A DNA stretch of 64,000 bases from Acholoe squamosa (Eukaryota; Annelida; Polychaeta; Phyllodocida; Polynoidae), in assembly GCA_949317995.1 (NCBI GenBank), contig OX439050.1, positions 5,022,001-5,086,000 on the forward strand, written 5' to 3'. The position numbers were made by a program, and so were the translations under genes. The notes below the pieces were generated by a model that was not told where the DNA came from, made no database searches, and was given only the letters and a program-made list of their open reading frames with translations. Shown here in pieces: positions 1,968 to 56,117 of this stretch (position 1 is its first letter; each line of letters begins with the position of its first letter).

Positions 1968-4786
1968 TCACATGAAACAGTTCGGGTAGTCTCTCTTAAT
2001 GGAGTTCTTGAAATCAGATAGGGTCTCTATGACTGTGTATTTTGCTTTTAGTTGATTCCACCTCGTGCAGGCTCTATACAAGGAGCTTCGAATTACGATA
2101 GGTTTAAGACAGTGTGGTATTAACAATCTTTTTCCCTGATGGAAGCGGGTGGGTATATTTCTTTTATCAACTAGGTTTTCACACTTTGACAGGTAGAAGG
2201 CATAAAATAAAAGATGTTGATCTCTCCTATCTATAAGCTCCATACATTTGCTAGCATTTTTGATTTGTTCTGTTGTCATGGTTGGATTTTCTTCTAATTT
2301 AACTTTGAAAACAACTCTTAATGCCCAATTTTGTAATAATTGTAATTCCCTTGTTTCCCCTCGGTAATCTCTGTCCCAGACAAAATCACAATAATCAAAA
2401 GTTGGTAGCACCATAGTCTTAAAGATATCTAGGGCTGTAGGATTATCAACAAATTTTCTCACTCTAGCAAGTTGGAAGATTTTATGCCTTATATTCTGAG
2501 TACATTTTGTTCTATGGTTTGTAAACTTAAGTTCAGGGTCAAGATCAATGCCCAGATATGAAAAATTATACACTCTCTCTAAAACAGAATTGTTCAACAT
2601 AAAAACACTATTTTCATTTTGGGCCCCATTAAATAACATCCATTTGGTTTTCTTCTCATTAACAGTGAGGGAATTATGTAGACACCAGTTATACACAGCT
2701 TTTATGGCATTTTCCATTTCTTGTGGTGTGTTTACAGTTATCACGGCATCATCGGCGTAAGAGTGGTTTCGAATGCACCAACAGTTGGGAGAGAGTTAAT
2801 ATAGACCGAAAAGAGTACAGGACCTAGTACTGATCCCTGTGGGACTCCATAATCTAATTTTTTAGAAGTGGACAGTACATCATTCGCTATAGTATTTTGT
2901 GTTCTATTATTAAGGTAATTTTCAAAAAATTTACAAGTTGAAAAATCAAGTCCTAGTTTGGACATTTTTCCTAGTAATTTAGTATGTGAGACAGTATCAA
3001 AAGCCTTTTTGTAGTCTAGGTAGAGACAATATGAAGGTTTGTTCAATATAATGTTATTTATTATAGTGGATAGGTGTTCAGTTATAGCGGTCTGTGTGGA
3101 GTGTCCAGTTCTATAACCATGTTGCTTTGGGCATAATAACTTACAGTCATTCATATAGGTTTGGAGTCTTTTACATATGATTTTTTCTAGGATTTTTCCT
3201 GGTATTTGTAATAGACTTATGGGTCTAAGGTCATTTACATCAAGAGAGTTTGCCTTTTTGTATAGAGGGATGACTGTTCCAGCTTTCCATACAGTTGGGA
3301 AGACTGAAGAACGTAGGCATTGGTTATATAGCACTAGTATAACATCAGCAATGGCAAAGAAAGCATCCTTAATTATAAATGATTTACAGTGTTTTATAGC
3401 AGATGGTTTCTTAATATTAATATCTTTTATCAACTTAATCAGATCAATGTAAGAGATATCATACATGAGGTTGGTATTCAGAATAGGTTCTCCATAAGGT
3501 ATGTTAGTCATTGGATCCCCCTCACCAGGTGGGAGTTTTTTCGCTAGGTCTTCACCAATATTTACAAAGAAACTGTTTATGTATTCTGCACATTCGCCAG
3601 GGGGAACAATTAAGTTAGTAGTCCTATTTCTCAATTTAATAAGGGTACTACTGGTTTTATGTGGTAGAAGTTTATGTATAGCTTCCCAGAATTTAGCTGG
3701 GTCAGTCTTTCTAAATCTTAGTAATAGTTCAATTTCATTTTTTTGACTAAGAAAGAGCTCTCGTTTGACAATAAGTTTGTAATGCTTAGCTGCAGCCCAG
3801 TCACCATTAGATTTCGTGTATCTGGCTTTTCTATAAAGTTTGTCTCGTACCCTCATTAGTTCTAGTATTGGTTGTGTTAGCCATGGCGGTGTATAGTCTG
3901 GTATTTTCATCTTTTTTACCGGACATAAGCTGTCAAGCTTAGATATGATCACATTTATAATTCTATTCCACATCTCATTGGCATCGTCCAATGTTACAAT
4001 GTCATTCCAGTTATATTGTGTTAGCATATTTTTGAAGGTTAGGAAATCATATCGTCTGTAAGACCGTGCATATATGGTTTTCATTTTTAGTTTGACCTTT
4101 TCACATTTTAAAGTCAAATATATAGGGGTGTGGTCGGATATGTGTACGTCTATCAGGCCAGAGAAGGCAATGTTATGTACATTTGTATAAAAATGATCTA
4201 AGATAGTCCCTGATACGGGCCTTGTGATTTCATCGATGACTTGAAATAATTTATTACCGGTACAAAATTCATTCACAGTGGCATCTTCAACATCTTTTTT
4301 TCATAGTAGATTAATATTGAAATCTCCCATTACAATCAGTTTTCTGTTATTTGTTACATCTTTCAAAAGGGAGGTTAATTTATTATATATAGCACTCTTT
4401 TCCTTACTGTCTGGTGGTCGATAACATACAAAGATCTTATATTTTATTACATTTATTTGAACATCCACACACAATATTTCAAAATCATTATTTATGAATG
4501 AACAAGTGAGATCAGGGGTGGCTATATAGTGGTCTTTTAAGTATAACATAAAGCCTCCAGCATTTTTTTCTCTGCTTGGATACCTATCTAGTCTTATATA
4601 TTGATAGCCAGGAATGTGTAGGTCTGCGTCTAGTACTGAAGGCTTTAACCATGATTCTACAATACCAGTTATGTCGGAGTGAGAAATTAACCTGAAGGTG
4701 TCTGTTCTTTTACCGTATATAGAGCGGGTGTTTGTGCAAAATATCTTTAGACCCTTTTGTGATTTTATTTTATCTAATACCACCAT
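1968..4786 (-). CDS. LINE ORF2: apurinic-like endonuclease plus reverse transcriptase
   Basis: ORF2 makes the nicking and copying enzyme of the LINE. It starts at the ATG at 4786 (MVVLDKIKSQKGLKIF). The endonuclease domain shows NTRSI, IVESWL, FVCYRPPDS, GDFNINLL and the terminal SDHTPI motif. The reverse transcriptase shows LRPISLLQIPGKILE, QHGYRTGHST, CLYLDYKKAFDTVSH, YGVPQGSVLGPVLF and the catalytic YADD (near 2755). A thumb/C-terminal region follows (KYTVIETLSDFKNSI...). Total length is about 940 residues, normal for this group. Two lesions are visible: an in-frame TGA at about 4301-4303 just after GDFNINLL, and one frame change between PQGSVLG and YADD (about 2760-2800). No RNase H or zinc knuckle was seen. 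Confidence 0.85.
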
Positions 4787-5457
4787 TTTGATAGTGACCT
4801 ACAAAGGTAAATAAGTAGTATGAATGGAATGAATGATAAATGTGAGAGATGACCACAGTAAAGGCATATTCAGACTGTTTGACTGTCATTAGAAGGGGGT
4901 CTGGAGCGTGGACAGGATTTAGAAATATATATACATTATTATTAAGTGCATTGCTTTATTAGTTATGATAACGTAAAAAACTAAAAAGATGTTAGTAAGA
5001 GTCTAATCATATGTCAATATACCTATTGACTAGTGGGGGTAGGTAGGTACTACTATAACCTAGAATAGAATTCAGTCGGTCAGCTCAGCCCGGGCGCGCC
5101 CAGAGATTGGCTCGAGGTGGTATATTTCAATGTTTAATCAAGCGCGTCCACTGACCTAGAGACGCTGTAGGTTTAGTATAGAAAAAATCCGTTTTTGGAC
5201 GCGGCTTTCCAATATAGAGGAGTACTTGATAATAGACATTGAAACATACAGTTATAATAGACCAAGGTATATGTACATTTAGCAGGGTATTAACAAAGCA
5301 TGGTTTCAGTTTTCTACGTTCTAAAAGAGACAGTCCCCTCTTCAGATACTTCTAGTAAGAAAAACATACAGTCAGAGATACATACACATTAGCCCTGTAT
5401 CAGCATAAATGCTTTTGGGAACAATTGGTATGTCATGTCTAACCTATAAGTATAGTA
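4787..5457 (-). other. Long inter-ORF spacer of the LINE
   Basis: There are 670 bases between the ORF1 stop and the ORF2 start, and no ORF of convincing length in them. The stretch near 5085-5215 is GC-rich and holds the short inverted words aagcgcgtcc and ggacgcggct. A spacer this long is unusual in this LINE group, where ORFs often lie close together or overlap. It could be a translation-reinitiation region or an older insertion. Confidence 0.45.
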
Positions 5458-7264
5458 CTATCTCTTATTAGGGCTGAATGCAGTGAGCATTCTTTGCAGC
5501 TTGTTCGATCCCTGACTTTTTTCAATTTTCTCTTTATCAGAATATTTTTTGGATTTATCTTGCTGTCTGGTACTTGATCTCCTGTTGGTTGACATGATGG
5601 GGATCTGCTCTTTGTTTGAGGATGTGCTGGTAGTGACTGCTCTAGGGGGAGGGGAGCTGTGAGCAGCTTGTAGATCACTCATAGTTATAACTTGCTTGGT
5701 GGTAGCTGGAGTTATTCTGTTGGTCATGTTCACTGTGGGTGCCTTGTAGACTTCAGGTGGATGGACGGTCGTAGTTGTCAGTACTGGGGGGGGATGTGTA
5801 TTTGTAGTCGGGGCAGTCGTTTCATGGGCAGTTGTGGTCTGGGCAGCGATCGTAGTCTGAGTAGTCTCCAGTGCTGTCTGCGCTGGAGGAGTTAAAGGTA
5901 TGGTTGGGGTGGAGGTAGTGGCTGGCACAGCAGGAGCAATGGTCGCTTGGGGTGTAACCACTTGTTGTACATTCACTATATTGGGGTTAGTTTCGTCCAT
6001 TACTTCTTTGGCTAGGTCTGGATATTTCTCGCGCAAGATTCGCCTGACCTCCATGAGGATAATACCACCTTTGTTTTTGCCAGGGAACGTTCCATTTTTC
6101 AGAAGTTTCGAGTTTATCGATGTATCAGTACCCCAGTGGGGGGACGCTACACATTCCAGAAGTTTCCTATGGCCTGTGCCTAGTAGAATCTTGAGAAGAT
6201 TTTTGTCTTGCTCGTACTTCAAAATGTTCAAAGCTAGGAGTTCATCTTCATCAATATTGCGCCAGCCCTCACATTCAAATTTTGCAATCTTTTTAGCATC
6301 TAGGGGTGTTTCGCAGTCCAAAATTTTTTGAGCTTTTACAGGTTTTCCTGCAAATTTAGCTTTGGCATAGGCAAAGCCCTGCTCCACACTACGAAATGAC
6401 AGTCCATTTGTGACGATTTTACACTCATAGAAATTTGACAGTGGGGCTAGTTCCCCTTGGTAGGCGACATAGCTGTCTGTAACCACCGTCTTAGCATTTG
6501 CAAGTTGTAGTTCAGGGGGAAGATCTTTCAGAGCTTTATGTGGATAGTATTTTCCATTTACCAATAGGCCTCTTCCTCTTGGTTTGACATCTATTCCCAC
6601 TTCTTGACCTAGGTAAGCTATGGACCTGACATCAGATTTTTGTTTTTTTACAGCTGGGTTTGAGTCATCTGACAGAAATACTGATGGTTTCTTATGTTTT
6701 AACTCTCCTTTTCTAGAAAGAATGTAGTCCCTCACACAGGCCTTTGTCATAACAATCACCATGGTACGAGTTGCTTTGTTTGGTGGTCCCTGACGGAAGG
6801 CATAATCTATGTCATAATAATCAAGGCTTGGGTCAATGCTCAACAGCAACTGGTATGCTACATCCTTGGTGCGTTCTCCCTCTTGATAAGCTAGGCCTTC
6901 GACTACAATATTTTCGTCTTCTCAAGTTATTGTCCAGCACAGAGATTTGCTCCTTATTATCTTCAATGGTAGCTCTATTAACTCTAGTAGTACGTTGTAC
7001 TTCAGCCATATCAGTTTTCAGCTGTTTTAGTTCATTTTCAAGTGCTTTATTCTTGTTTTTAAGTTGGACAAGTTCATCGTAATTCCATTTGGTATTGTCA
7101 CTTATTGTAATGGCCTCCTCTTTGTATAGCTTCAGTACCTCACCTGTTTTTTCCTGTAAGGCAGCTATTGGAGAGTCTTTTTTCCCTAGGTTTAATGTTT
7201 GTAGATCTCTGATAGCATTCAAGAAGGGAGTATGGTCGCTTTCTTGGTAGTGTTTCTCCGCCAT
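5458..7264 (-). CDS. LINE ORF1: coiled coil + RRM/CTD + NADAR domain
   Basis: From the Met at 7264, about 115 residues are charged and heptad-like (LKNKNKALENELKQLKTDM), a coiled coil as in trimerising LINE ORF1 proteins. One frame change near 6915 leads into an RRM-like segment (NIVVEGLAYQEGERTKDV ... FRQGPPNKATRTMVIVM) and a CTD-like segment ending LLVNGKYYPHKALKDLP. From 6471 to 6016 is a complete NADAR (YbiA/DUF1768) domain: APLSNFYECKIV, SFRSVEQGFAYAKAKFAGK, a conserved Trp in EGWRNI, KYEQDKNLLKILLGTG, HWGTD and PGKNKGGIILMEVRRIL. A Thr/Pro-rich linker and a basic C-terminus (KSKKYSDKEKIEK) follow. NADAR proteins act on ADP-ribose linked compounds, including ADP-ribosylated guanosine. 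Its role in a LINE is inference. Confidence 0.85.
6016..6471 (-). other. NADAR domain inside LINE ORF1
   Basis: About 152 residues align by eye over the whole YbiA/NADAR family: the LSNFY entry, SVEQ with its Glu, the Trp after ~40 residues, WGxD, and the closing GKN..G..LMEVR with its Glu. None of the motifs expected to line the active site is missing, and the domain is free of stops. It lies between the RRM/CTD unit and a Thr-rich linker, in frame with both, so it belongs to the LINE protein and is not a separate host gene. Confidence 0.9.
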
Positions 7265-7550
7265 TGTTGTGGTTTGTAGCCGGCTGTCACGGTGTAGAAG
7301 CTAAGTGAGTACAGGTATGCCCGAGCTGAGACGACCCCTAATATCGCCCACTTGACGACATCTCAGAGTAAAAACTCCTAAAATAAGGTTAAAAGTAGGG
7401 TTTTTCCTTATGAAAACCTTATCGGGCTTGGCACTAGACATTCGATAAGCCTCCCTGAAGATTTGGTGAAGTTGCTGCACAGATATCCTTCAAAATCCCA
7501 TAATTATCTGTCACACGCTCTCGCAGTAGACTCACTCACAGACGGCCATT
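7265..7550 (-). other. LINE 5' untranslated / promoter region
   Basis: This is the sequence upstream of the ORF1 start on the minus strand; LINEs of this group carry an internal promoter here. No specific element was recognised, and the 5' boundary is an estimate. Confidence 0.4.
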
Positions 7551-8371: not shown

Positions 8372-8442
8372 TGGAGACACCGGGATTCGAACCTGGGTCT
8401 CTCGCTTGCAAGTGGAGTGCTCTACTGCTGAGCTACATCCCC
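8372..8442 (-). tRNA. tRNA-Ala(TGC)-like sequence, probably a tRNA-derived repeat
   Basis: On the minus strand a 71-base sequence starts GGGGATGTAGCTCAGCAG and ends TGTCTCCA. The 7-bp acceptor stem (with G-U pairs), the D arm (GCTC...GAGC), a 7-base anticodon loop CTTGCAA with anticodon TGC (alanine), and the T arm with GGTTCGAATCC all fold. Two anticodon-stem pairs and one T-stem pair mismatch. Pol III A and B boxes are intact. It lies inside a transposon, so it may be a tRNA pseudogene or a SINE head rather than a working tRNA gene. Confidence 0.6.
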
Positions 8443-18240: not shown

Positions 18241-18270
18241 AAGCCCTGGCTTATAAATCGAGGGTTTATA

Positions 18271-19260
18271 CGTCCCGGGCTTATACGTCCAGGGCTTATA
18301 CGTCCAGGGCTTATACGTCCAGGGCTTATACGTCCCGGGCATATACGTCCCGGGCTTATACGTCCCGGGCTTATACGTCCAGGGCTTATACGTCCCGGGC
18401 TTATACGTCCCGGGCTTATACGTCCCGGGCTTATACGTCCAGGGCTTATACGTCCCGGGCTTATACGTCCAGGGCTTATACGTCCAGGGCTTATACGTCC
18501 AGGGCTTATACGTCCCGGGCTTATACGTCCCGGGCTTATACGTCCAGGGCTTATACGTCCCGGGCTTATACGTCCAGGGCTTATACGTCCCGGGCTTATA
18601 CGTCCAGGGCTTATACGTCCAGGGCTTATACGTCCCGGGCTTATACGTCCCGGGCTTATACGTCCCGGCTTATACGTCCCGGGCTTATACGTCCCGGGCT
18701 TATACGTCCCGGGCTTATACGTCCAGGGCTTATACGTCCAGGGCTTATACGTCCCGGGCTTATACGTCCAGGGCTTATACGTCCCGGGCTTATACGTCCA
18801 GGGCTTATACGTCCAGGGCTTATACGTCCCGGGCTTATACGTCCCGGGCTTATACGTCCCGGCTTATACGTCCCGGGCTTATACGTCCCGGGCTTATACG
18901 TCCCGGGCTTATACGTCCAGGGCTTATACGTCCAGGGCTTATACGTCCAGGGCTTATACGTCCAGGGCTTATACGTCCAGGGCTTATACGTCCCGGGCTT
19001 ATACGTCCCGGGCTTATACGTCCCGGGCTTATACGTCCCGGGCTTATACGTCCCGGGCTTATACGTCCGGGGCTTATATGTCCGGGGCTTATACGTCCCG
19101 GGCTTATACGTCCCGGGCTTATACGTCCAGGGCTTATACGTCCCGGGCTTATACGTCCAGGGCTTATACGTCCCGGGCTTATACGTCCCGGGCTTATACG
19201 TCCCGGGCTTATACGTCCAGGGCTTATACGTCCCGGGCTTATACGTCCCGGGCTTATACG
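18271..19260. repeat. 15-bp minisatellite, about 66 copies
   Basis: The unit is cgtcccgggcttata; position 6 alternates between C and A (rarely G). Two copies lack one base, and around each the variant order is the same over about ten units, which shows a block duplication of 13 units. The unit looks derived from the 'gcttatacg' word of the neighbouring MITEs. Confidence 0.95.
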
Positions 19261-44330: not shown

Positions 44331-44830
44331 ATATCTACATAATGAGTACGACATATAGAAGGACGGACCATCGTAACACAGTACATGGACAAATACAAAC
44401 ACCTTAAATCACATACTTGGTTCTTTGACAATTCTCTCCCCACCTTCTACCCGACCCCTATCTTAGTGGGCCCTGGGCATCATTCCATGCAGTGGTCAAT
44501 ATACTACGACCTTGATATAGAAATTGGGGGTTGTCCGCCGTCCATGTGTTATAAAAGTACTGCACCAATTTCTTTTTTATAATTAATTTAAAGCTATCTT
44601 TCTGCACAACCCACCTCAATTCACTGAGCATGGGCCTGATACACAGGGTCAACAACTAGTGCTGTAGATTTTGGGCAAGCTTGCAATATTTTAGGGGCAT
44701 CAGTGCCTCTCGTGCCCAATGAGGGGACTACCAAAGCTAAACCCCCATATACCAATCTGTGACACATCGTCAGTTGCAAGTACAACCTACACAAATCTAC
44801 CGGTAGCATTTTGATTTGAACATATAGATC
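44331..44830. other. No gene recognised
   Basis: Unassigned. Confidence 0.3.
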
Positions 44831-44835
44831 TATGA

Positions 44836-45176
44836 CAGGGTTCTCCACACATAGGGAGTACACGGGCGGGGTTCCCGTGTGCTTTTCCGTGCCGCCCGTG
44901 TGCTTTAGCTGAAAAGCACCGCCTGTGTGCTTTTCAGGAGACTATAAGCTTTCTACACTTTTTTGAATTTTGCAAATCGGACAATTAGAACAGAAGTTAG
45001 GGCTGAAAAAGTAAAATTTGGTTGAAAAATTCCAACAGAATCTATTCTTTTGCCCATTTATAATATAATTTTTCAAAATTCTGTCACAAGACATACCTAT
45101 GTTTTGCCGCTATGATCCACACAACGTTTGTATTTGAAAATTACCTGTATGCTTTTTCATCCTGTGGAGAACCCTG
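44836..45176. mobile_element. CAGGGTTCTCCACA hAT-like MITE
   Basis: Ends CAGGGTTCTCCACA and TGTGGAGAACCCTG are inverse, with the 5-base duplication tatga at 44831-44835 and 45177-45181. The interior shares 'tgcaaatcggacaattagaa' (inverted) with 25093-25433. A 'cccgtgtgctttt' word is repeated near the left end. Confidence 0.85.
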
Positions 45177-45181
45177 TATGA

Positions 45182-45600
45182 CATGTACTGTCCTAGGGTC
45201 ATTTATCTTTAAACACACACGGATACCTGTATTAAACAGTACTTGGTACTTTTCCAATATCGTATTAGGTAGCCATAGTCTATATAAGGTAACACCATAG
45301 TCTTGAAGATCATTATAGCAGTTCTTTCGTCTATACAATACCTGATCTGCATTAGCATCCAGATCTTATTATTCTATGGTCTTAGACAGACCATAGAATA
45401 GTTACAAGAACCATGTTCACAGATGTTGAATCGCCCTTCTAGTGTAGACTTGCTAAAGTCAAATCTATAGCCTAGCCACATATTGCCCTTTTTTACTCAT
45501 AGGATTACACATAGGGTTGCACAGGGACCAACCTATCCTTTTAATATTGGCTGTTAGTGCTTGGACAAAGAAAGTCTACTCACCCTGGATATAGCTGTGA
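45182..45600. other. No gene; small hairpin
   Basis: A perfect-looking hairpin 'attctatggtc ... gaccatagaat' lies at 45370-45400. Confidence 0.4.
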
Positions 45601-45604
45601 AAAC

Positions 45605-46810
45605 CCATTTTAACCCTTTAATGCACTGGTGTCTGTTTCTATAGGGGTATACATAGGGCAGTGCATAGGGTTTATGATGCAGGCTGTCCAGGGGCTGCAC
45701 ATACTTCCCTATGATGCATTGATGCACTTTAACCCTTTATGGATGGCATGATGCATTGATACACAGTCAACCCTTTATGAATGGCATGATGCATTGATTC
45801 ACTTTAAGCCTTTATAGATAGCATGATGCATTGATGCACATTTAACCCTTTATGGATAGCATGATGCATTGATGCACATTTAACTCTTTATGATTGGCAT
45901 GATGCATTGATGCACATCTAACCCTTTATAGATAGCATGATGCATTGAGGCACATTTAACCCTTTATGGATAGCATGATGCATTGATGCACAGTTAACCC
46001 ATTATGAATGGCATGATGCATTGATGCACTTGAACCCTTTAAGAATGGCATGATACATTGATACACTTTAACCCTTTATGAATGGCATGATGCTTTGATG
46101 CACAGTTAACCTGTTAAGAATGGCATGATGCATTGATGCACGGTAAACCCTTTATGAATGACATGATGCATTGATGCACTTTAACCCTTTATGGATGGCA
46201 AGATGCATTGATGCACATTTAACCCTTTATGGATGGCAAGATGCATTGATGCACATTTAACCCTTTATCAGGCCCGTAACTAGCCCTTGTCGCGGGGTGG
46301 TTCGATTTTTGATAAGGTGGAACTCGATCAGTTAAAAAGTGGAACCTGCCAAAAATTTCATATAATATACAGCAAATATTAACTTAATTTGTATACAAAT
46401 CTGTATGGTAATGGGTCATTTCAGGCAAAATGTCCTAATTTAAAGGCTTACTCTCTAAAAACCTTAATAATTGTCCGATTCACAAGCCGCAAAAACTGAC
46501 ATGTAGCTTATCATGTGCACTTTTTGGCTAGCTAGGGTGGAACTTTTTTGGCCCATCAGGGGCCTGGGGGGGTTCGTTCGAACCGACAAACCCCCCCTAG
46601 TTACGGGCCTGTTTATGGATGGCAAGATGCAGTGATGCACAGTCAACCCTTTATGAATGGCATGATGCATTGATGTACTTTAACCCTTCTTGGATAGCAT
46701 GATGCATTGATGCACAGTTAACCCTTTATGGATTTCACAAAGCATTGATGCACATTTAACCCGTTAATGATGGCATAATGCATTGATGCACTTTAACCTT
46801 TTGAGTTAAC
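45605..46810. repeat. 38-bp satellite array, about 20 units, split by a MITE
   Basis: The unit is 'tttaaccctttatggatagc' + 'atgatgcattgatgcaca'. It joins the TTAACCCTTTA end and the GATGCATT word of the hairpin family, so it probably grew from one end of that element. A hAT-like MITE interrupts it at 46269-46611. Confidence 0.9.
46269..46611. mobile_element. CAGGCCCGTAACTAG hAT-like MITE inside the satellite
   Basis: Ends CAGGCCCGTAACTAG and CTAGTTACGGGCCTG are inverse. The satellite phrase 'ccctttatggat' is split with tttat duplicated (46264-46268 and 46612-46616). Confidence 0.9.
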
Positions 46811-46825
46811 CTGAGTTAATTTTTC

Positions 46826-47650
46826 AGCAATTAGTCAATATTTGTCAGTAATTATTCACTATTTATCAGAAATAGTCAATATATGTCAGTTATTAATGGT
46901 GTTGGAAACGAAATATCAATCTGTCCTTGTTGGCAGCTACCGATTTTGTGAATGTTCAAAGGGGAACGTTCTCTATGACATCACAGTGCCGGTATCCAAG
47001 ACTCCCAGTGACATCACAAGTAACCATGGTGGTTGGTTGCTTGGTGACTGTCAGTTGCCAGGTGCTGTCAACTAATGTGTTGACAGTCTCTGGTGCAGTT
47101 TATTTGTAAATCTGAGATGTTTACAAAAGTGAGCGGTTTCATCCAAGGGACTCATCAGGCTGCACTTGATTGCAGTGTAAATTAAAAATTAGGTAAATTT
47201 GAAATTTATTGACTGTGGGCGGTACCCTGGCCTTGGTGGGCCTAGGGAGGGGGGGGGGGTTTAATACAATTCTCTGGGTGGCACTTGGGTGGTGTCACTG
47301 TTTAGAGAAAAGACCCAAGGATCCACTAGGGGGGTAGTGGAAAAATTAAATCTCCAGTCGTCCAAAAAAAAAAGCTTATATGTTAGTTATTACTCACTCT
47401 TTGTCAGCAATTATTCAGGATATGTCAGTACTTAGTCACTAGATATCAGAAATTAGTCAACACATGTCAGTATTTACATACAATTTGTCAGCAATTAGTC
47501 AATAAATGTCAGTATTTTACTCACTTTTTGTCAGCATTCAGTCAATATATGCAAGTACCTCCTCCTATGTCGGTAATAATGCAGTATTTGTGAGCAACTA
47601 TTCAATATATGTCAGGAATTACTCACTATTTGTCAGCAATTAGTTAAAGC
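46826..47650. repeat. AT-rich minisatellite ('attagtcaatatttgtcag') with an insertion
   Basis: About 18-20-bp units at 46826-46900 and 47385-47650. The block between (46900-47384) is unrelated and ends in an A-run, so it is probably an inserted retro-fragment. Confidence 0.75.
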
Positions 47651-49590
47651 ATAGTTTAGCATAGCACATAGAACACAGTTGCCCATAGATCATTTTAGGG
47701 CAGTGCCCTATCCTTAGACATTTTATCTCATTGACTTAAACATAGCCTGTGCTTGATGTTCAAATGACAACTTATAATCTATGGTAACACCTAGGTATTT
47801 ATACATATTCACCATATCCAGTTGTCTGTCTTAAATGGTAAGACGGAGAGCCATGTCTTCTTCACCCACAGTCATATGCTTAGATTTAGCAGCATTTATT
47901 GTGAGGCTGTTGCCAGTGCACCAGTCCACCACTATATCTAGGTCCCTCTGCAGAATAGTTTGTACTTGCTCAACTGTATCGGCTTTAGTTATAAGCAATG
48001 TATCATCTGCGTAAAGTCGTAATTCACTCATAGTTTCAAGCTTCGCCATCTCATTGACATAGATGATAAACAGTAACAGACCCAGAATTGAACCCAGGGC
48101 GGCACCATATGACACATTCAAACAGTCTGAGGCAACTTTATTACAAAAAGTCCTTTGTAGCCTTCCCTGCAAGTAGCTACACAGCCAATCAACCACTCTG
48201 ACCCCTATGCCGGGGGGGGGCAATTTCTTGAGCAATATTGAGTGATCTAATGAATCAAACGCCTTTGTCAAATCAAGGTAGACTATGCCCACTTTCTTCT
48301 TGTTCACTAGATGTGCTAAGTGCATTACTTGGAACACAGTATCAATGGTCTACTTACTTTTCCTAAATCCATTTTGAGCTTTATCCAGCAAATTATTGAG
48401 GTCTAAATATCTATACAATTGGTTATGCACAAACCTTTCTAGTATTTTACCCGCTATTGGTAATAGAGAAATTGGCCTCAACTCAGACAGCGAGGTGGGG
48501 TTAACAACCTTAGGAGCCGGGGTCAGAGTGGCCTTTTTCCATGCCTCCGGGAAAACACTTGTAGCAATTGAGGTGTTTAATACATGTGTGTACTCAACCT
48601 GCAGGATCAATAAAGAGTCTCTCAATAATCTAGCAGATATCATATCAGTGCCTGAAGATTTGTGAATATCTATTTTATTGATTTCTTTGACCACCTCTGC
48701 ACAAGGTATAAAAGCAATGTTGAACGATTCGGGGGGCATGGTCTGGTGGGGTGGGGGGCAGGGGCTGCGCGAGGCAGTTCAGACGCTAGCTTTTGCCCTA
48801 TCTGAGAGAAGAAAGTATTTAAACTGGCTGCTGTCTCAGCTGGTGTCATCTGTTCACCCGTAGGGTGGAGTAAGGAGATCCATCTACTCTTAGTCCTGTT
48901 AGGAATGATATCCGAGATGACCTCCCAAAATTTCTTGGGGTCCCCTTTATACTTTTCGAGTTGCACTTTAACAAAGACTCCCTTAGCTCTCCTTACAGCA
49001 TAATTGGCTTGGTTTTTCAGGGCTTTAGCTCTATCTCTGTCCCCCTGGTCCCCAGTTCCGCAGGCTACACCAAACGCCACATCTCTTTCTTTAAACATAG
49101 CAAGCAGGTTTGCATCTAACCATGGCGGCCTCTTCTGCCTTACCTTAAAAGTTTTAATGGGATATAGCTCATTAGCAACTTCATATATCCTTGATTCGAT
49201 CCAATCCCATGCAACATTCACATCAGATTCACTCATTACATTTCCCCAATTATACTCAAACAGTTTTCTGCGTACATCATCAAAAGAATACTTTGTGTAC
49301 ACTCTACCTGTGATGGTTTCCTTTTTTTGCGCAATTTCTTTCTTTCTTTAGCAGTATATAGACAGGGATATGATCAGATATGTTAAGATATAATCCACCT
49401 GCCTCAGCAACAATTTCAGATCCAGTGAAGATTTGATCCAAGACATTTACAGAGTTATAATAAGGTCGTGTCGGCTCATCAATGCAGGCTTGCAGGAAAT
49501 ATTCTTTACATATATTATCCATGCATGTGGAGTTTAGTTCTCGCTCAGAGAGATTAATGTTGAAATCCCCTACCAATGTTATTGTAACAG
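47651..49590 (-). mobile_element. Truncated LINE (Jockey/CR1-L2 group), second copy
   Basis: Minus-strand ORF2 fragment from the end of the endonuclease into the thumb. The 5' half is missing, and the 3' end runs into the minisatellite. It is not the same family as the NADAR LINE: shared motifs differ at most residues. Confidence 0.85.
47740..49576 (-). pseudogene. LINE ORF2 fragment: endonuclease end plus reverse transcriptase
   Basis: It begins GDFNINLSERELNSTC and has SDHIPV closing the endonuclease. The reverse transcriptase then shows SSGTDMISARLL, LRPISLLPIAGKILERF, QNGFRKSK, IVYLDLTKAFDSLDH, a decayed form of the usual PQGSVLGPLLF (AALGSILGLLLFIIYVNE), and LYADDTLL. Reading is broken by frame changes near 49303, 48740 and 48345 and by an in-frame TAA near 47831, beyond which DRQLDMVNMYKYLGV continues in the same frame. 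It has more lesions than the NADAR LINE, so it is likely older. Confidence 0.85.
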
Positions 49591-50735
49591 TTTAAGTTAG
49601 AGAGAAGCCAGTCACATCAGTGGACAGAAAACAGTTTGGTGGTTCTGGGGGTATAAATTTTTTTATGATTTGATATGGAGAAGTCTATCATATTTTGATG
49701 GAAACTCAAAATTCCCTGTGGTGGAGTAAAATCACACAGGTCAGTTTTGTGCAATTTTAAGCAAAATATGCTGTTACTGTTTTACTTCTAGCACTTTTCA
49801 GCACACAGATAGATAGGAATAGATTTTAGATTCTTGTAGAAGACAAAATTACGGACATTTTGGTTGTAGTTCTAAAAGGTGAACAAATGCTTTGAAATTT
49901 AAAAAAAATGGTTAAAAATCTGAATTATTTTTTTCCAATTTGAAAATTTCAAAAACTGTTTTTCCACATTAGCGCTTTATATGATTGGGACTCTCACTGT
50001 ATTCAGTGTTAAAAAATAGATGACAAAGATGAAAATCACTATGGTTTTCAGCTTTCCTTGCAGGAAAACTCTTGAAAAAGACAAGCAGATATCATTTTCA
50101 ATAATCTTGGTGGCCAAAAGAGATCACAAATCATTTTTTCTGTAATTCCAATTAACATTTTCTTATTCTATGTACTGGGTAATTAGTTCAGGGTATCAGG
50201 AGCAGTGAACCATTATCAAATCATCTTATCATCTTACATCTGACACAAGGGTCTTCTGTCAAGAAAGAGAGAATGGTAAACATTCTCCAATCTGTTGTGG
50301 ACTATCTGAATAGATGACAGCAGTGGCTTTCTAGAAGTATACATAGAAAAGGGGTGGGCATGGGTATGACACAAACAGGACTGATGCATGTCCCTTGAGC
50401 TGAGAGGTGTCAGCAAAGTTCTCGGTGGTAAAAAGGTCACCTACTATAATCTGATCAGAACCTCCAGTTTCTAACCCTTAGTTTCACTTTTGAAATCGAT
50501 GCTGTTGCAATTGATATCCATCACACCTACTAAATCAATGTTAAAAATGAGATCAGAATGAAATTGAAACACTAGAAAAATCTCAAAAAGTTTGTCTTTG
50601 TATGTGCAAATTTTGAAAAAGACAGCTGCAAGTGCCTCAATCAATACAGTTAGTCAGGAATAGGTCGCATGATATAGCTGGCTAAGACATCCCATATTTC
50701 CCTGTGTATAAGCCCGTACGGGCTTGTAAACACAC
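49591..50735. other. No gene recognised
   Basis: AT-rich, low-repeat sequence. No motif or splice structure that I can support. Confidence 0.35.
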
Positions 50736-53375: not shown

Positions 53376-53629
53376 GATCTGGCAAACTTAGTCGGTATGA
53401 TCCCAACACTGGCAGGGCACCAGAGGCAGAGAAGGGCCCATGTTAAATTGACTTACCATGTCATGCTGCATGTGAATTCATAGTTAATCTATGCAAAAAT
53501 AAGCCTAAATCAAGGCTTATTATTTATTTACCTTAATCTCAAATTTGCTACTGTCTTGAAATAAAAACTAGAAAATTGAGTCATATCTTGTATCACTTAG
53601 CAAATCATTTTGTTCTTTGTCCCAAACAG

Positions 53630-56117
53630 AATGCCGCTGTCAAGGATTAAGTTACCCGCTGACGATGCACGCCTTATAACCTACGAGGACACTGTCTACA
53701 AACTCAAACTGACCTACAACCGAGACAATGCCAGCGCCTTCCTTCCCTGCTCAGGATCACAACTTAACCATCAAGTCGAACAAATCCTACGGGCGGTTAT
53801 CTACGCGAACCCATCAGAACTAATGAAAATAAAAACGAAACATTTCTATGCAGATTGTTCATTTTCTGAATGGCAGGCCCTTAGGCTGATTGCCTTTAAA
53901 AAGGACAATATTAGACTTAACGCACATCCTCAGGTAATCTCGATAAAACTTACCCCACACGGTCTTCACAATGAGCTGACTGGCAGTAGTAATGAACGCT
54001 TGGCCAAACGACACAAATCAGATGAAGGATCGACTAGTAGGAAGAGCTCACCACCACGAGCACACGAGTCATCCAGTATAGCTCAGGCTGATGAACAGAC
54101 ACATAGTAGACGACGGACAGATAGAGATAGGTCAGAACGACGGGTACATTTGGCTGAGTCTGAACATCGCACAACTACGCACCAAGTGGAAGAAAATGTA
54201 GGGAGGAAAAAGAAGTGAGCATATATCTTTCTGTCATTATTTTAAATAATTGAGTGATAAATGTCCAAAATTCCTTGTCCATCATTTTAATATGGACGAA
54301 ACTGATCTATATAGATTTAGTCAAAAATACATTAGAATTTGACAAATTCATAGGAAATACCCTGTGAGAATAGCCATCTACATGAATGAAAAAGACTGTA
54401 TATCACACATCATATCCGCAATACCTTGATTAAAAATAAGCATAATTGTATTTGTTTCATCATAATTCAAGGGCACACCGGCCACCGTTACAGTTTGTCG
54501 AGGCCCCCCAGCGGCTGTTACGGGTGGATATGGGAGACAGGTTAAGTGAAGACCAACTGCAGAACCACTGTGACACTGGTAGTGGTGACCACGTGAGTAG
54601 ACCCAGGAAATCTCCAAGGTAACTACAACATGTATTAATTTCTATATACCGTAAATCATTGCGTATAGGATGCGGCTTATACACAAGAATAAACCCAGAT
54701 GTGTCCTAAACGATTTATCAAAACTCAGGGTGTGCCTATAGGTGAGGTTTTTATACTATAAAACCCTGCTAAACTACCTAAAATTAAGGCCCATCTTCAC
54801 CTGATAGCATTCCCCTAAACTCAGGGTGGGTCTTATATGGGAGGAGCGTCCTATACGCGAGACTTTACGGTAAATACCATAAACTCTCGCATATAAGGTG
54901 CTCCTCATATGCATCCTGTGTTTGGCTAAAACCTATAGGTTGCACCTAGAGACATATTTTGGTCATTTTAGTGTAAAATCCCTGCATATAAGATGCAGCT
55001 GGCGTATAAGCTGCGTCTTATTCGCGAGCATTTACGATACCTACATTCTTAACTTGATAAGTTCAAAATTACATAATTAATTTGTGTATCTATAACACCT
55101 ATGGTGTTCTATGATTTTGAGATGCATATGGGAATGTTTTTTGAAATTTTTGTCTTTCCCCGAAAGAGGCTACTAGAAAAATATTTGATCGAAGAATATT
55201 ATGCTATAGTGAAATGTCGCTATGAAAAATTAATCGTAAACATGTTAAGGGGGGCTGATGGGTTTTTAGGGGGTCAACATTTTTTCAACCCCTATGAGAG
55301 GGGTCAAAATGATTTCATCTGTTTTCAGTGAAAAAGCCTACGTGTTACTTCAGGTTAAAAGAGCACGTTTGTGCACATTTTTTTTTTCCTTTGGGGGATC
55401 AAAAAAATTTCCAACACCCCCCCCCCCATTGTTAAAAAATTATCACTCACTTAGATATATTGAATTAACGCCAACACCATTCTGAATATATTATTCATTA
55501 TCGATACTATATTTTTGTTTCAAACTTTCAGTAGGTTGTGAAGTAAGTAGATTTGAGTTGTATGTATAATAATGTACATAATGTGGGATGCATGAGACAC
55601 CTGGTGTTATAAATTAGAACTAATCAATGTTTATACAATACATATTTGCTAGGCATTTTCACGCCTGAGAATTTCATTCACAATGATACATTATGATATA
55701 TCTAAACGATACCGCTTGCTTCTAAAATTGAGTAAAAAATAAGTGAGCTCTCAGCTTATCTATGATACTAATGATGCACTCCTATATCTACCGTAATCTC
55801 CTGCGTATAAGGCGCAGCCCGCGTATAAGGCGCACCCCCAACTAAGGGAGGCCTGTCCCACGTATAAGGCGCACCCCTAAGGCCAGATTTTTGTTAATTT
55901 AGTACTGTTCTATAGTAAAAATAACCCCCCTATAAGGCGCACCCCAAACTCAAGGCAATGTCCCTCCCATGTATAAGACTCAGCAGCATTTTGTTTGGCG
56001 TATAAGACGTGCCTTATACGCGGGAGATTACGGTAAGTCAGGTTAAATGGTTACTTTGTGCCATATGGTTAAGACTAGGCAGTACTTTCTACATTGAAAT
56101 TTGTAGCTTTTGCTCAG

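What the first reader, a model, noticed from the sequence alone, without database searches (positions are those of the whole stretch)
5458..7264. A LINE ORF1 protein that carries a complete NADAR domain
ORF1 keeps the standard coiled coil, RRM and CTD, then adds a full NADAR (YbiA/DUF1768) domain with all its motifs (LSNFY, SVEQ, Trp, WGxD, GKN..G..LMEVR). NADAR proteins are known to act on ADP-ribose derivatives, including removal of ADP-ribose from guanosine in nucleic acid. Inference: the LINE may carry its own eraser to protect its RNA or new cDNA from host ADP-ribosylation. I cannot tell without a search whether this fusion has been described.
Basis: partly seen in the sequence, partly recalled or inferred. 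Interest (0 to 1): 0.88.

Follow-up and report, generated by a model that had tools for sequence, protein, structure and literature searches.

The report
LINE retrotransposons carrying a NADAR enzyme domain
A jumping gene in this genome carries, inside its RNA-binding protein, a well-preserved domain of a kind that elsewhere removes ADP-ribose tags from nucleic acids; diverse relatives carry it too, and a short published note had already seen the same pairing in oyster elements of another type.

The parts
6926..7264 (-). ORF1 N-terminal part: start ATG at 7264, coiled-coil region (open frame 7300..6833)
   Evidence: coiled coil seen in the model of homologue P0001 (helix 26-112)
6478..6921 (-). 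ORF1 RRM + CTD (residues 1-148 of frame 6921..5461); a frame break separates it from the coiled coil
6031..6477 (-). NADAR domain (Pfam residues 159-297 = 6447..6031; session profile 149-297)
   Evidence: Pfam PF08719 E 1.8e-19; session profile 174.7 bits (the window was among the rows the profile was built from)
5461..6030 (-). Thr/Pro-rich tail of ORF1 (lower constraint)
   Evidence: median dN/dS 0.264
4304..4798 (-). ORF2 endonuclease (EEP) part
   Evidence: Pfam PF03372 E 7.2e-7
2744..4300 (-). ORF2 middle part with the first part of the reverse transcriptase, after an in-frame stop
   Evidence: Pfam RVT_1 E 5e-22
1971..2795 (-). ORF2 C-terminal RT part, in a shifted frame
   Evidence: RVT_1 E 4.9e-9; 59% identical to L016 ORF2 over 263 residues

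Best explanation
The window holds a damaged copy of a LINE whose ORF1 protein is an L1-type RNA-binding protein (coiled coil, RRM, CTD) fused to a YbiA-family NADAR domain. NADAR is a standing, selected part of these elements. Most likely ORF1p coats the element's RNA, and the NADAR domain works on that RNP as an ADP-ribosyl hydrolase: it removes ADP-ribose (best precedent: from guanine) from LINE RNA, new cDNA or the RNP's proteins, so that ADP-ribosylation by the host does not block reverse transcription or integration. Shown: the fusion, its abundance and spread over LINE groups, purifying selection in the window's group, predicted fold in a homologue, conserved main active-site residues. 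Inferred: catalysis, substrate, and a host modifier as the selective force.
Against: No activity shown. Several ADP-ribose contacts of 8bau are not kept: D130 is S in the window, C in L016, L017, L027; W133 is lost in group B, in L010/L019 and in P0002; by the single alignment the window also differs at Y84 (F), D86 (C) and R93 (D). E88A (E43 position) had only a minor effect in vitro (PMC11543638), so conservation of that glutamate is not proof of catalysis. The model is of low confidence (block means 50-62) at residues 371-400, where D130 and W133 map. YbiA-family NADARs can also act as N-glycosidases on riboflavin intermediates (PMC9303266, PMC11543638, passages). The host species is unknown here, so the clam link is only a lead.
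Confidence: 0.5

Rival explanations
1. One reading: the NADAR domain binds ADP-ribose without needing to cleave it, and brings the RNP to sites of poly-ADP-ribosylation at nicked target DNA.
For: A review states that PARP1 and PARP2 gather at L1 target-site breaks and that loss of both cuts retrotransposition by about 80% (PMC8535693, passages). Some contact positions (D130, W133) drift between groups.
Against: The two active-site glutamates do not change in 33 rows, though both also coordinate the distal ribose, so this does not exclude binding alone.
Confidence: 0.2
2. RNA-processing role: the domain acts on NAD- or ADP-ribose-linked RNA ends or other RNA intermediates of the element (the idea offered in PMC12477816, and close to nematode SNA-3).
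For: The Ectocarpus paper proposes processing of RNA intermediates; nematode SNA-3 with three NADARs is needed for trans-splicing and contacts the cap-binding complex (PMC9303266, passages); here the domain is fused to an RNA-binding protein.
Against: No NADAR activity on RNA ends was mentioned in the passages read.
Confidence: 0.2
3. Passenger: a structurally useful extension of the CTD (folding, multimerisation, RNA contact) whose enzyme activity is irrelevant.
For: Conservation could come from structure alone; no activity shown; several ligand contacts are not kept.
Against: Glutamates invariant across groups with 22-39% mean RT-core identity; dN/dS as low as in RRM+CTD.
Confidence: 0.1
4. 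Chance neighbour or host gene next to a LINE, or an assembly artefact.
For: None found.
Against: Same frame and order in many copies on contigs C1-C18; proteins of the same layout in other assemblies (P0001, P0003, P0004, P0007); the two host-type NADAR genes fall on the other side of the tree.
Confidence: 0.005

Closest known systems
NADAR-bearing ORF1 of Tx1 LINEs of Crassostrea gigas (one sentence, and a supplementary figure that I did not see, PMC12477816)
   Same: LINE ORF1 with a YbiA-family NADAR domain. Group E of this genome (L020, L025) has an L1/Tx1-like ORF2: 353 bits to human L1 ORF2p over residues 6-888.
   Different: The window's element belongs to another LINE group: its relative L017 gives 36.6 bits to 8c8j, the only L1-type chain listed, RT part only, with 48.1 bits to 8gh6 as best; the window RT piece gives about 50 bits to L1 ORF2p, RT part only. 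No oyster sequence was at hand for direct comparison.
Ectocarpus Gypsy elements with NADAR at the N-terminus of Pol (PMC12477816)
   Same: Retrotransposon carrying NADAR.
   Different: LTR element; NADAR sits in Pol, not in ORF1.
DarT1-linked NADAR antitoxins and P. nicotianae NADAR (8bau; PMC11543638)
   Different: Fused to coiled coil-RRM-CTD; D130, Y84, D86 and R93 of 8bau not kept in the window.
NADAR domains in polyproteins of positive-strand RNA viruses (PMC9503650, passages)
   Same: Domain carried by a selfish genetic element, proposed there to counter host ADP-ribosylation.
   Different: Virus polyproteins; not compared by sequence here.

Membership tests
NADAR (YbiA-like, PF08719) | Profile match over the curated cut-off, near full length | tested here: met
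   71 bits against 35.1, profile 11-163 of 163
NADAR (YbiA-like, PF08719) | NADAR fold | tested here: met
NADAR (YbiA-like, PF08719) | E43, K50 and E125 (8bau numbering) | tested here: met
   All three in the window; over 33 rows E43 and E125 in 33, K50 in 28
NADAR (YbiA-like, PF08719) | Further ADP-ribose contacts (W89, W133, D130, Y84, D86, R93) | tested here: inconclusive
   W89 and W133 kept in the window, D130 is S (alignment gap nearby); Y84, D86, R93 not kept by the single alignment
NADAR (YbiA-like, PF08719) | Hydrolysis of ADP-ribose from guanine or related N-glycosidase activity | not testable with these tools
   needs protein
LINE (non-LTR retrotransposon) | ORF2 with apurinic-type endonuclease and reverse transcriptase | tested here: met
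   PF03372 E 7.2e-7, RVT_1 E 5e-22 and 4.9e-9 in three pieces; one open ORF of 949 aa in relative L017
LINE (non-LTR retrotransposon) | Multi-copy, dispersed | tested here: met
   27,191 first-look RT candidates, 48 scored, 52 match rows
LINE (non-LTR retrotransposon) | 3' tail and target-site duplication | tested here: inconclusive
   No convincing flanking repeat among the 20 families shown of at least 60; element ends not determined
L1-type ORF1 protein | Coiled coil, RRM, CTD | tested here: met
L1/Tx1 LINE clade | ORF2 aligning colinearly with L1 ORF2p over EN and RT | tested here: not met
   Window RT piece about 50 bits, RT only; L017 36.6 bits to 8c8j, RT only; positive control L025 353 bits over 6-888
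CR1/L2/Jockey-like LINEs | RT phylogeny with named clade members | not tested
   No reference RTs of these clades at hand; the resemblance is recalled from motifs only

The most novel reading that the evidence does not exclude
LINEs of several groups carry their own nucleic-acid de-ADP-ribosylase as a standing part of the ORF1 RNP, because the host ADP-ribosylates retrotransposon RNA or cDNA (for example on guanine). That would make ADP-ribosylation an anti-retrotransposon defence in animals and NADAR-ORF1 its counter-defence, passed between LINE groups as an ORF1 module.
Probability: 0.28. Interest if true: 0.9.

Novelty: new variant of a known kind. Interest (0 to 1): 0.62.

Why it matters
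What eukaryotic NADARs do, animal ones included, is called unclear in PMC11125620 (passages). Here is a large natural family of them, under strong selection and tied to one process, retrotransposition. If the activity is confirmed, it points to ADP-ribosylation of nucleic acid or RNP as a pressure on retrotransposons, which is directly testable. It also shows that LINE ORF1 proteins can take up enzyme domains, in more than one layout (after RRM-CTD, or before an SGNH-like segment).

Tried and rejected
Host gene or chance neighbour: rejected by the copies and by the tree.

Single capture against several captures: undecided. In the tree (32 rows; seven near copies L007, L011, L012, L019, L020, L022, L027 dropped beforehand) the 22 rows I counted as element domains (18 loci of this genome or the window and P0001, plus P0002-P0004 and P0007, which together with P0001 were counted as element proteins by layout without seeing an ORF2) together with P0005 lie opposite nine rows of cellular or phage type (90/91). 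Without P0005 the element clade has support of only 77/38. Holding group A or D with the cellular rows is weakly rejected (p 0.023 and 0.047), group E is not (p 0.30); B, C and F were not tested. Identities are saturated (A-B: RT 39%, NADAR 30%; A-E: RT 22%, NADAR 24%).

An ADP-ribosyltransferase in the middle ORF of group C (Pfam NarE, E 0.0011, 19.7 bits under the cut-off of 27): not accepted. Middle ORFs of group B as SGNH hydrolases: weak hits below cut-off in 2 of the 6 scanned (L026 E 0.029, L009 second ORF E 0.15). The SGNH-like segment of group D is recalled from its sequence motif; Pfam gave no such hit.

dN/dS limits: pairs with dS outside 0.05-1.5 or with 80 codons or fewer were dropped (of 231 possible pairs 115 were used for NADAR, 125 for RRM+CTD, 148 for the tail; the tail pairs too were all under 0.5). 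The 18 added copies were picked from the 88 for coverage and absence of stops, which favours intact ones. In one search (which printed only pairs with dN under 0.6 or dS under 2): group D gave 0.05, 0.13 and 0.82 and group E 0.94, all at dS 0.053 or less, too close to judge; most B pairs are saturated in dS, and the three with a value give 0.24-0.46 at dS 1.7-2.5.

Searches that gave little: the profile search with 18 ORF1s gave one new protein; the search for related loci could not start; paper searches pairing NADAR or DUF1768 with transposon terms, 'NADAR domain' and YbiA+ORF1+LINE gave only PMC12477816 on this point. One search found nothing because of my search form. Searches hold noise from the surname Nadar (one such paper opened), and only 20 of 104 were listed. 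Subscription papers and preprints are not in that library. The supplement of PMC12477816 was not seen.

Full report
WHAT IS THERE. The feature lies on the minus strand. The frame 6921..5461 encodes RRM and CTD (residues about 1-148), a NADAR domain (Pfam residues 159-297, window 6447..6031) and a Thr/Pro-rich tail. Pfam PF08719 matches with E 1.8e-19 and 71 bits over a cut-off of 35.1. The session's own profile, built with the window among its rows, gives 174.7 bits and finds no second NADAR in window ORFs of 50 aa or more. The start ATG (7264) and coiled-coil stretch lie in a neighbouring frame, 7300..6833. ORF2 follows in three pieces: endonuclease 4798..4304, then a stop, 4300..2744, then a frame break, 2795..1971. 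This copy is therefore inactive by sequence, while the NADAR domain itself is uninterrupted.

COPIES. A NADAR profile search had 3,224 first-look candidates; 150 were scored, all 150 over the Pfam cut-off, and 143 of 150 had no stop inside the match. The ranking favours intact copies, and the window's own 71-bit domain scores below all 150. A search with the window ORF1 piece gave 91 rows from 88 scored of 9,875 candidates; 79 of 91 rows (the window's own included) span the NADAR residues 149-297, and no row ends near residue 148 as a NADAR-less copy would. The two nearest copies are 96% identical with an open ORF1 frame of 613 aa. As a check not selected for NADAR, an RT search with ORF2 of L017 (itself a NADAR-bearing element of the window's group) gave 31 full-length ORF2 rows, L017 included. 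Upstream stretches of six of the other 30 were read: five carry NADAR, one of them (L053) only the later part of the domain; the sixth, L057, has no ORF of 90 aa or more in 2.5 kb. This tests the window's group only.

SPREAD OVER LINE GROUPS. Twenty 9.9 kb regions were chosen from the NADAR list, mostly for long open frames; all 20 had NADAR in a long ORF and a downstream ORF2 that matched the window's RT. Of the eight shorter loci, L001 and L002 are host-type genes and L003-L008 are too short to judge. By ORF2 identity they fall into about six groups (letters A-F are mine): A with the window (52-89%), B (42-75%), C, D, E and F, with 22-39% mean RT-core identity between groups. In the ORF2 tree (L022 and L023 left out) A, D and E are well supported, C is two identical rows, F is one row, and B is not resolved as one clade (41% of bootstrap trees). 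Group E is L1/Tx1-like: 353 bits to human L1 ORF2p over residues 6-888. Group D gives 96 bits, RT part only. Group A is not L1/Tx1-like. A resemblance of group A to CR1/L2/Jockey-type elements is recalled from motifs and was not tested. ORF1s of A, B, C, E and F align with P0001 through coiled coil, RRM, CTD and NADAR, but RRM+CTD identity between groups is only 11-23%, so for C, E and F that homology is not firmly shown. Group D has NADAR followed by an SGNH-like segment in the same ORF, recognised by eye and without a Pfam hit. Some B and C elements have additional ORFs between ORF1 and ORF2.

OTHER ASSEMBLIES. Protein searches found P0001 (52% identical over 60% of the window ORF1 piece), P0002-P0006 and P0007, all with PF08719. 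P0001, P0003, P0004 and P0007 align through a coiled-coil segment and RRM-CTD before NADAR. Their organisms are not named and no ORF2 was seen with them. P0005 and P0006 are not shown to be element proteins.

SELECTION. Among 22 ORF1s (window, 18 further copies without stops in the match, L016, L017, L027), Nei-Gojobori medians were 0.047 for RRM+CTD (125 pairs), 0.047 for NADAR (115 pairs) and 0.264 for the tail (148 pairs), out of 231 possible pairs; all used pairs are under 0.5 in each part. A second subfamily (L017, L027, L055) gave 0.032-0.066 for NADAR. Group B pairs are mostly saturated in dS with dN 0.07-0.6, and three with a value give 0.24-0.46; group E (0.94) and one D pair (0.82) are near 1 but at dS 0.04 or less, and the other D pairs are 0.05 and 0.13. 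Copies were chosen for open frames, so the values describe lineages that stay intact.

ORIGIN. In NADAR trees the element domains form the groups A, B, C, D and E seen by ORF2, with good support for B, C, D and E and moderate support for A (80/73, 89/59), so the domain appears to travel with its LINE. Two host-type genes (L001, L002) group with bacterial NADARs. Support for one element-only clade is weak, and the L1/Tx1-like group is not excluded from the cellular side, so one capture or several cannot be decided.

FUNCTION. The best explanation is an ADP-ribosyl hydrolase on the ORF1 RNP that protects LINE RNA, cDNA or proteins. Rivals are an ADP-ribose reader that exploits PARP activity at the target nick (PMC8535693, passages), an RNA-end processing role (PMC12477816; SNA-3, PMC9303266), or a structural passenger. 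The clam finding of guanine-N2 DNA ADP-ribosylation (PMC11209040, passages) is suggestive only, since the host here is unidentified.

PRIOR WORK. PMC12477816 (passages read) states that querying Repbase recovered divergent hits to ORF1 proteins of several Tx1 LINE families of C. [quoted passage not shown] So the kind is known. What I did not find in print (searches) is NADAR in LINEs outside Tx1, evidence of selection on it there, or an active-site survey of the element domains.

A second pass against the calls added ligand contacts that are not kept, the E88A result, the unresolved group B in the ORF2 tree, the dropped rows and the tail's own dN/dS range.

Noticed in passing
window 44461-49591, minus strand: Fragments of a second LINE ORF2, mostly closest to L015 of group B (about 49-70% identical pieces); no NADAR found with it in the window.
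   Followed up: partly
window 8372-8442, minus strand: tRNA-Ala (anticodon tgc) found by both Rfam and ARAGORN, about 1.1 kb upstream of the ORF1 start; could be a real gene or a tRNA-derived repeat.
   Followed up: no
window 18244-19260: Tandem array of a 15-base unit, 68 copies, open in several frames on both strands.
   Followed up: no
window 53601-54215, plus strand: 205-aa open frame with a Pfam hit to MAJIN under the cut-off (E 0.0073).
   Followed up: no
L013 1374-7148, plus strand; also L011, L012, L022: Group D: one ORF with NADAR followed by an SGNH-like segment, separated from a 1167-aa ORF2 in the same frame by a single stop codon (L013), which may point to readthrough or reinitiation.
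   Followed up: partly
L009 2970-4617, L026 4118-5504, L018, L021, L028: One or two extra ORFs of about 210-300 aa between ORF1 and ORF2 in group B, with weak GDSL/SGNH profile hits in 2 of 6 scanned.
   Followed up: partly
L010 4102-4821, L019 3763-4482: 240-aa middle ORF with a hit to the NarE family under the cut-off (E 0.0011); judged unreliable.
   Followed up: partly
L001 1486-2151, L002 1336-2076, minus strand: Two host-type YbiA-like NADAR genes that group with bacterial NADARs, separate from the element domains.
   Followed up: partly
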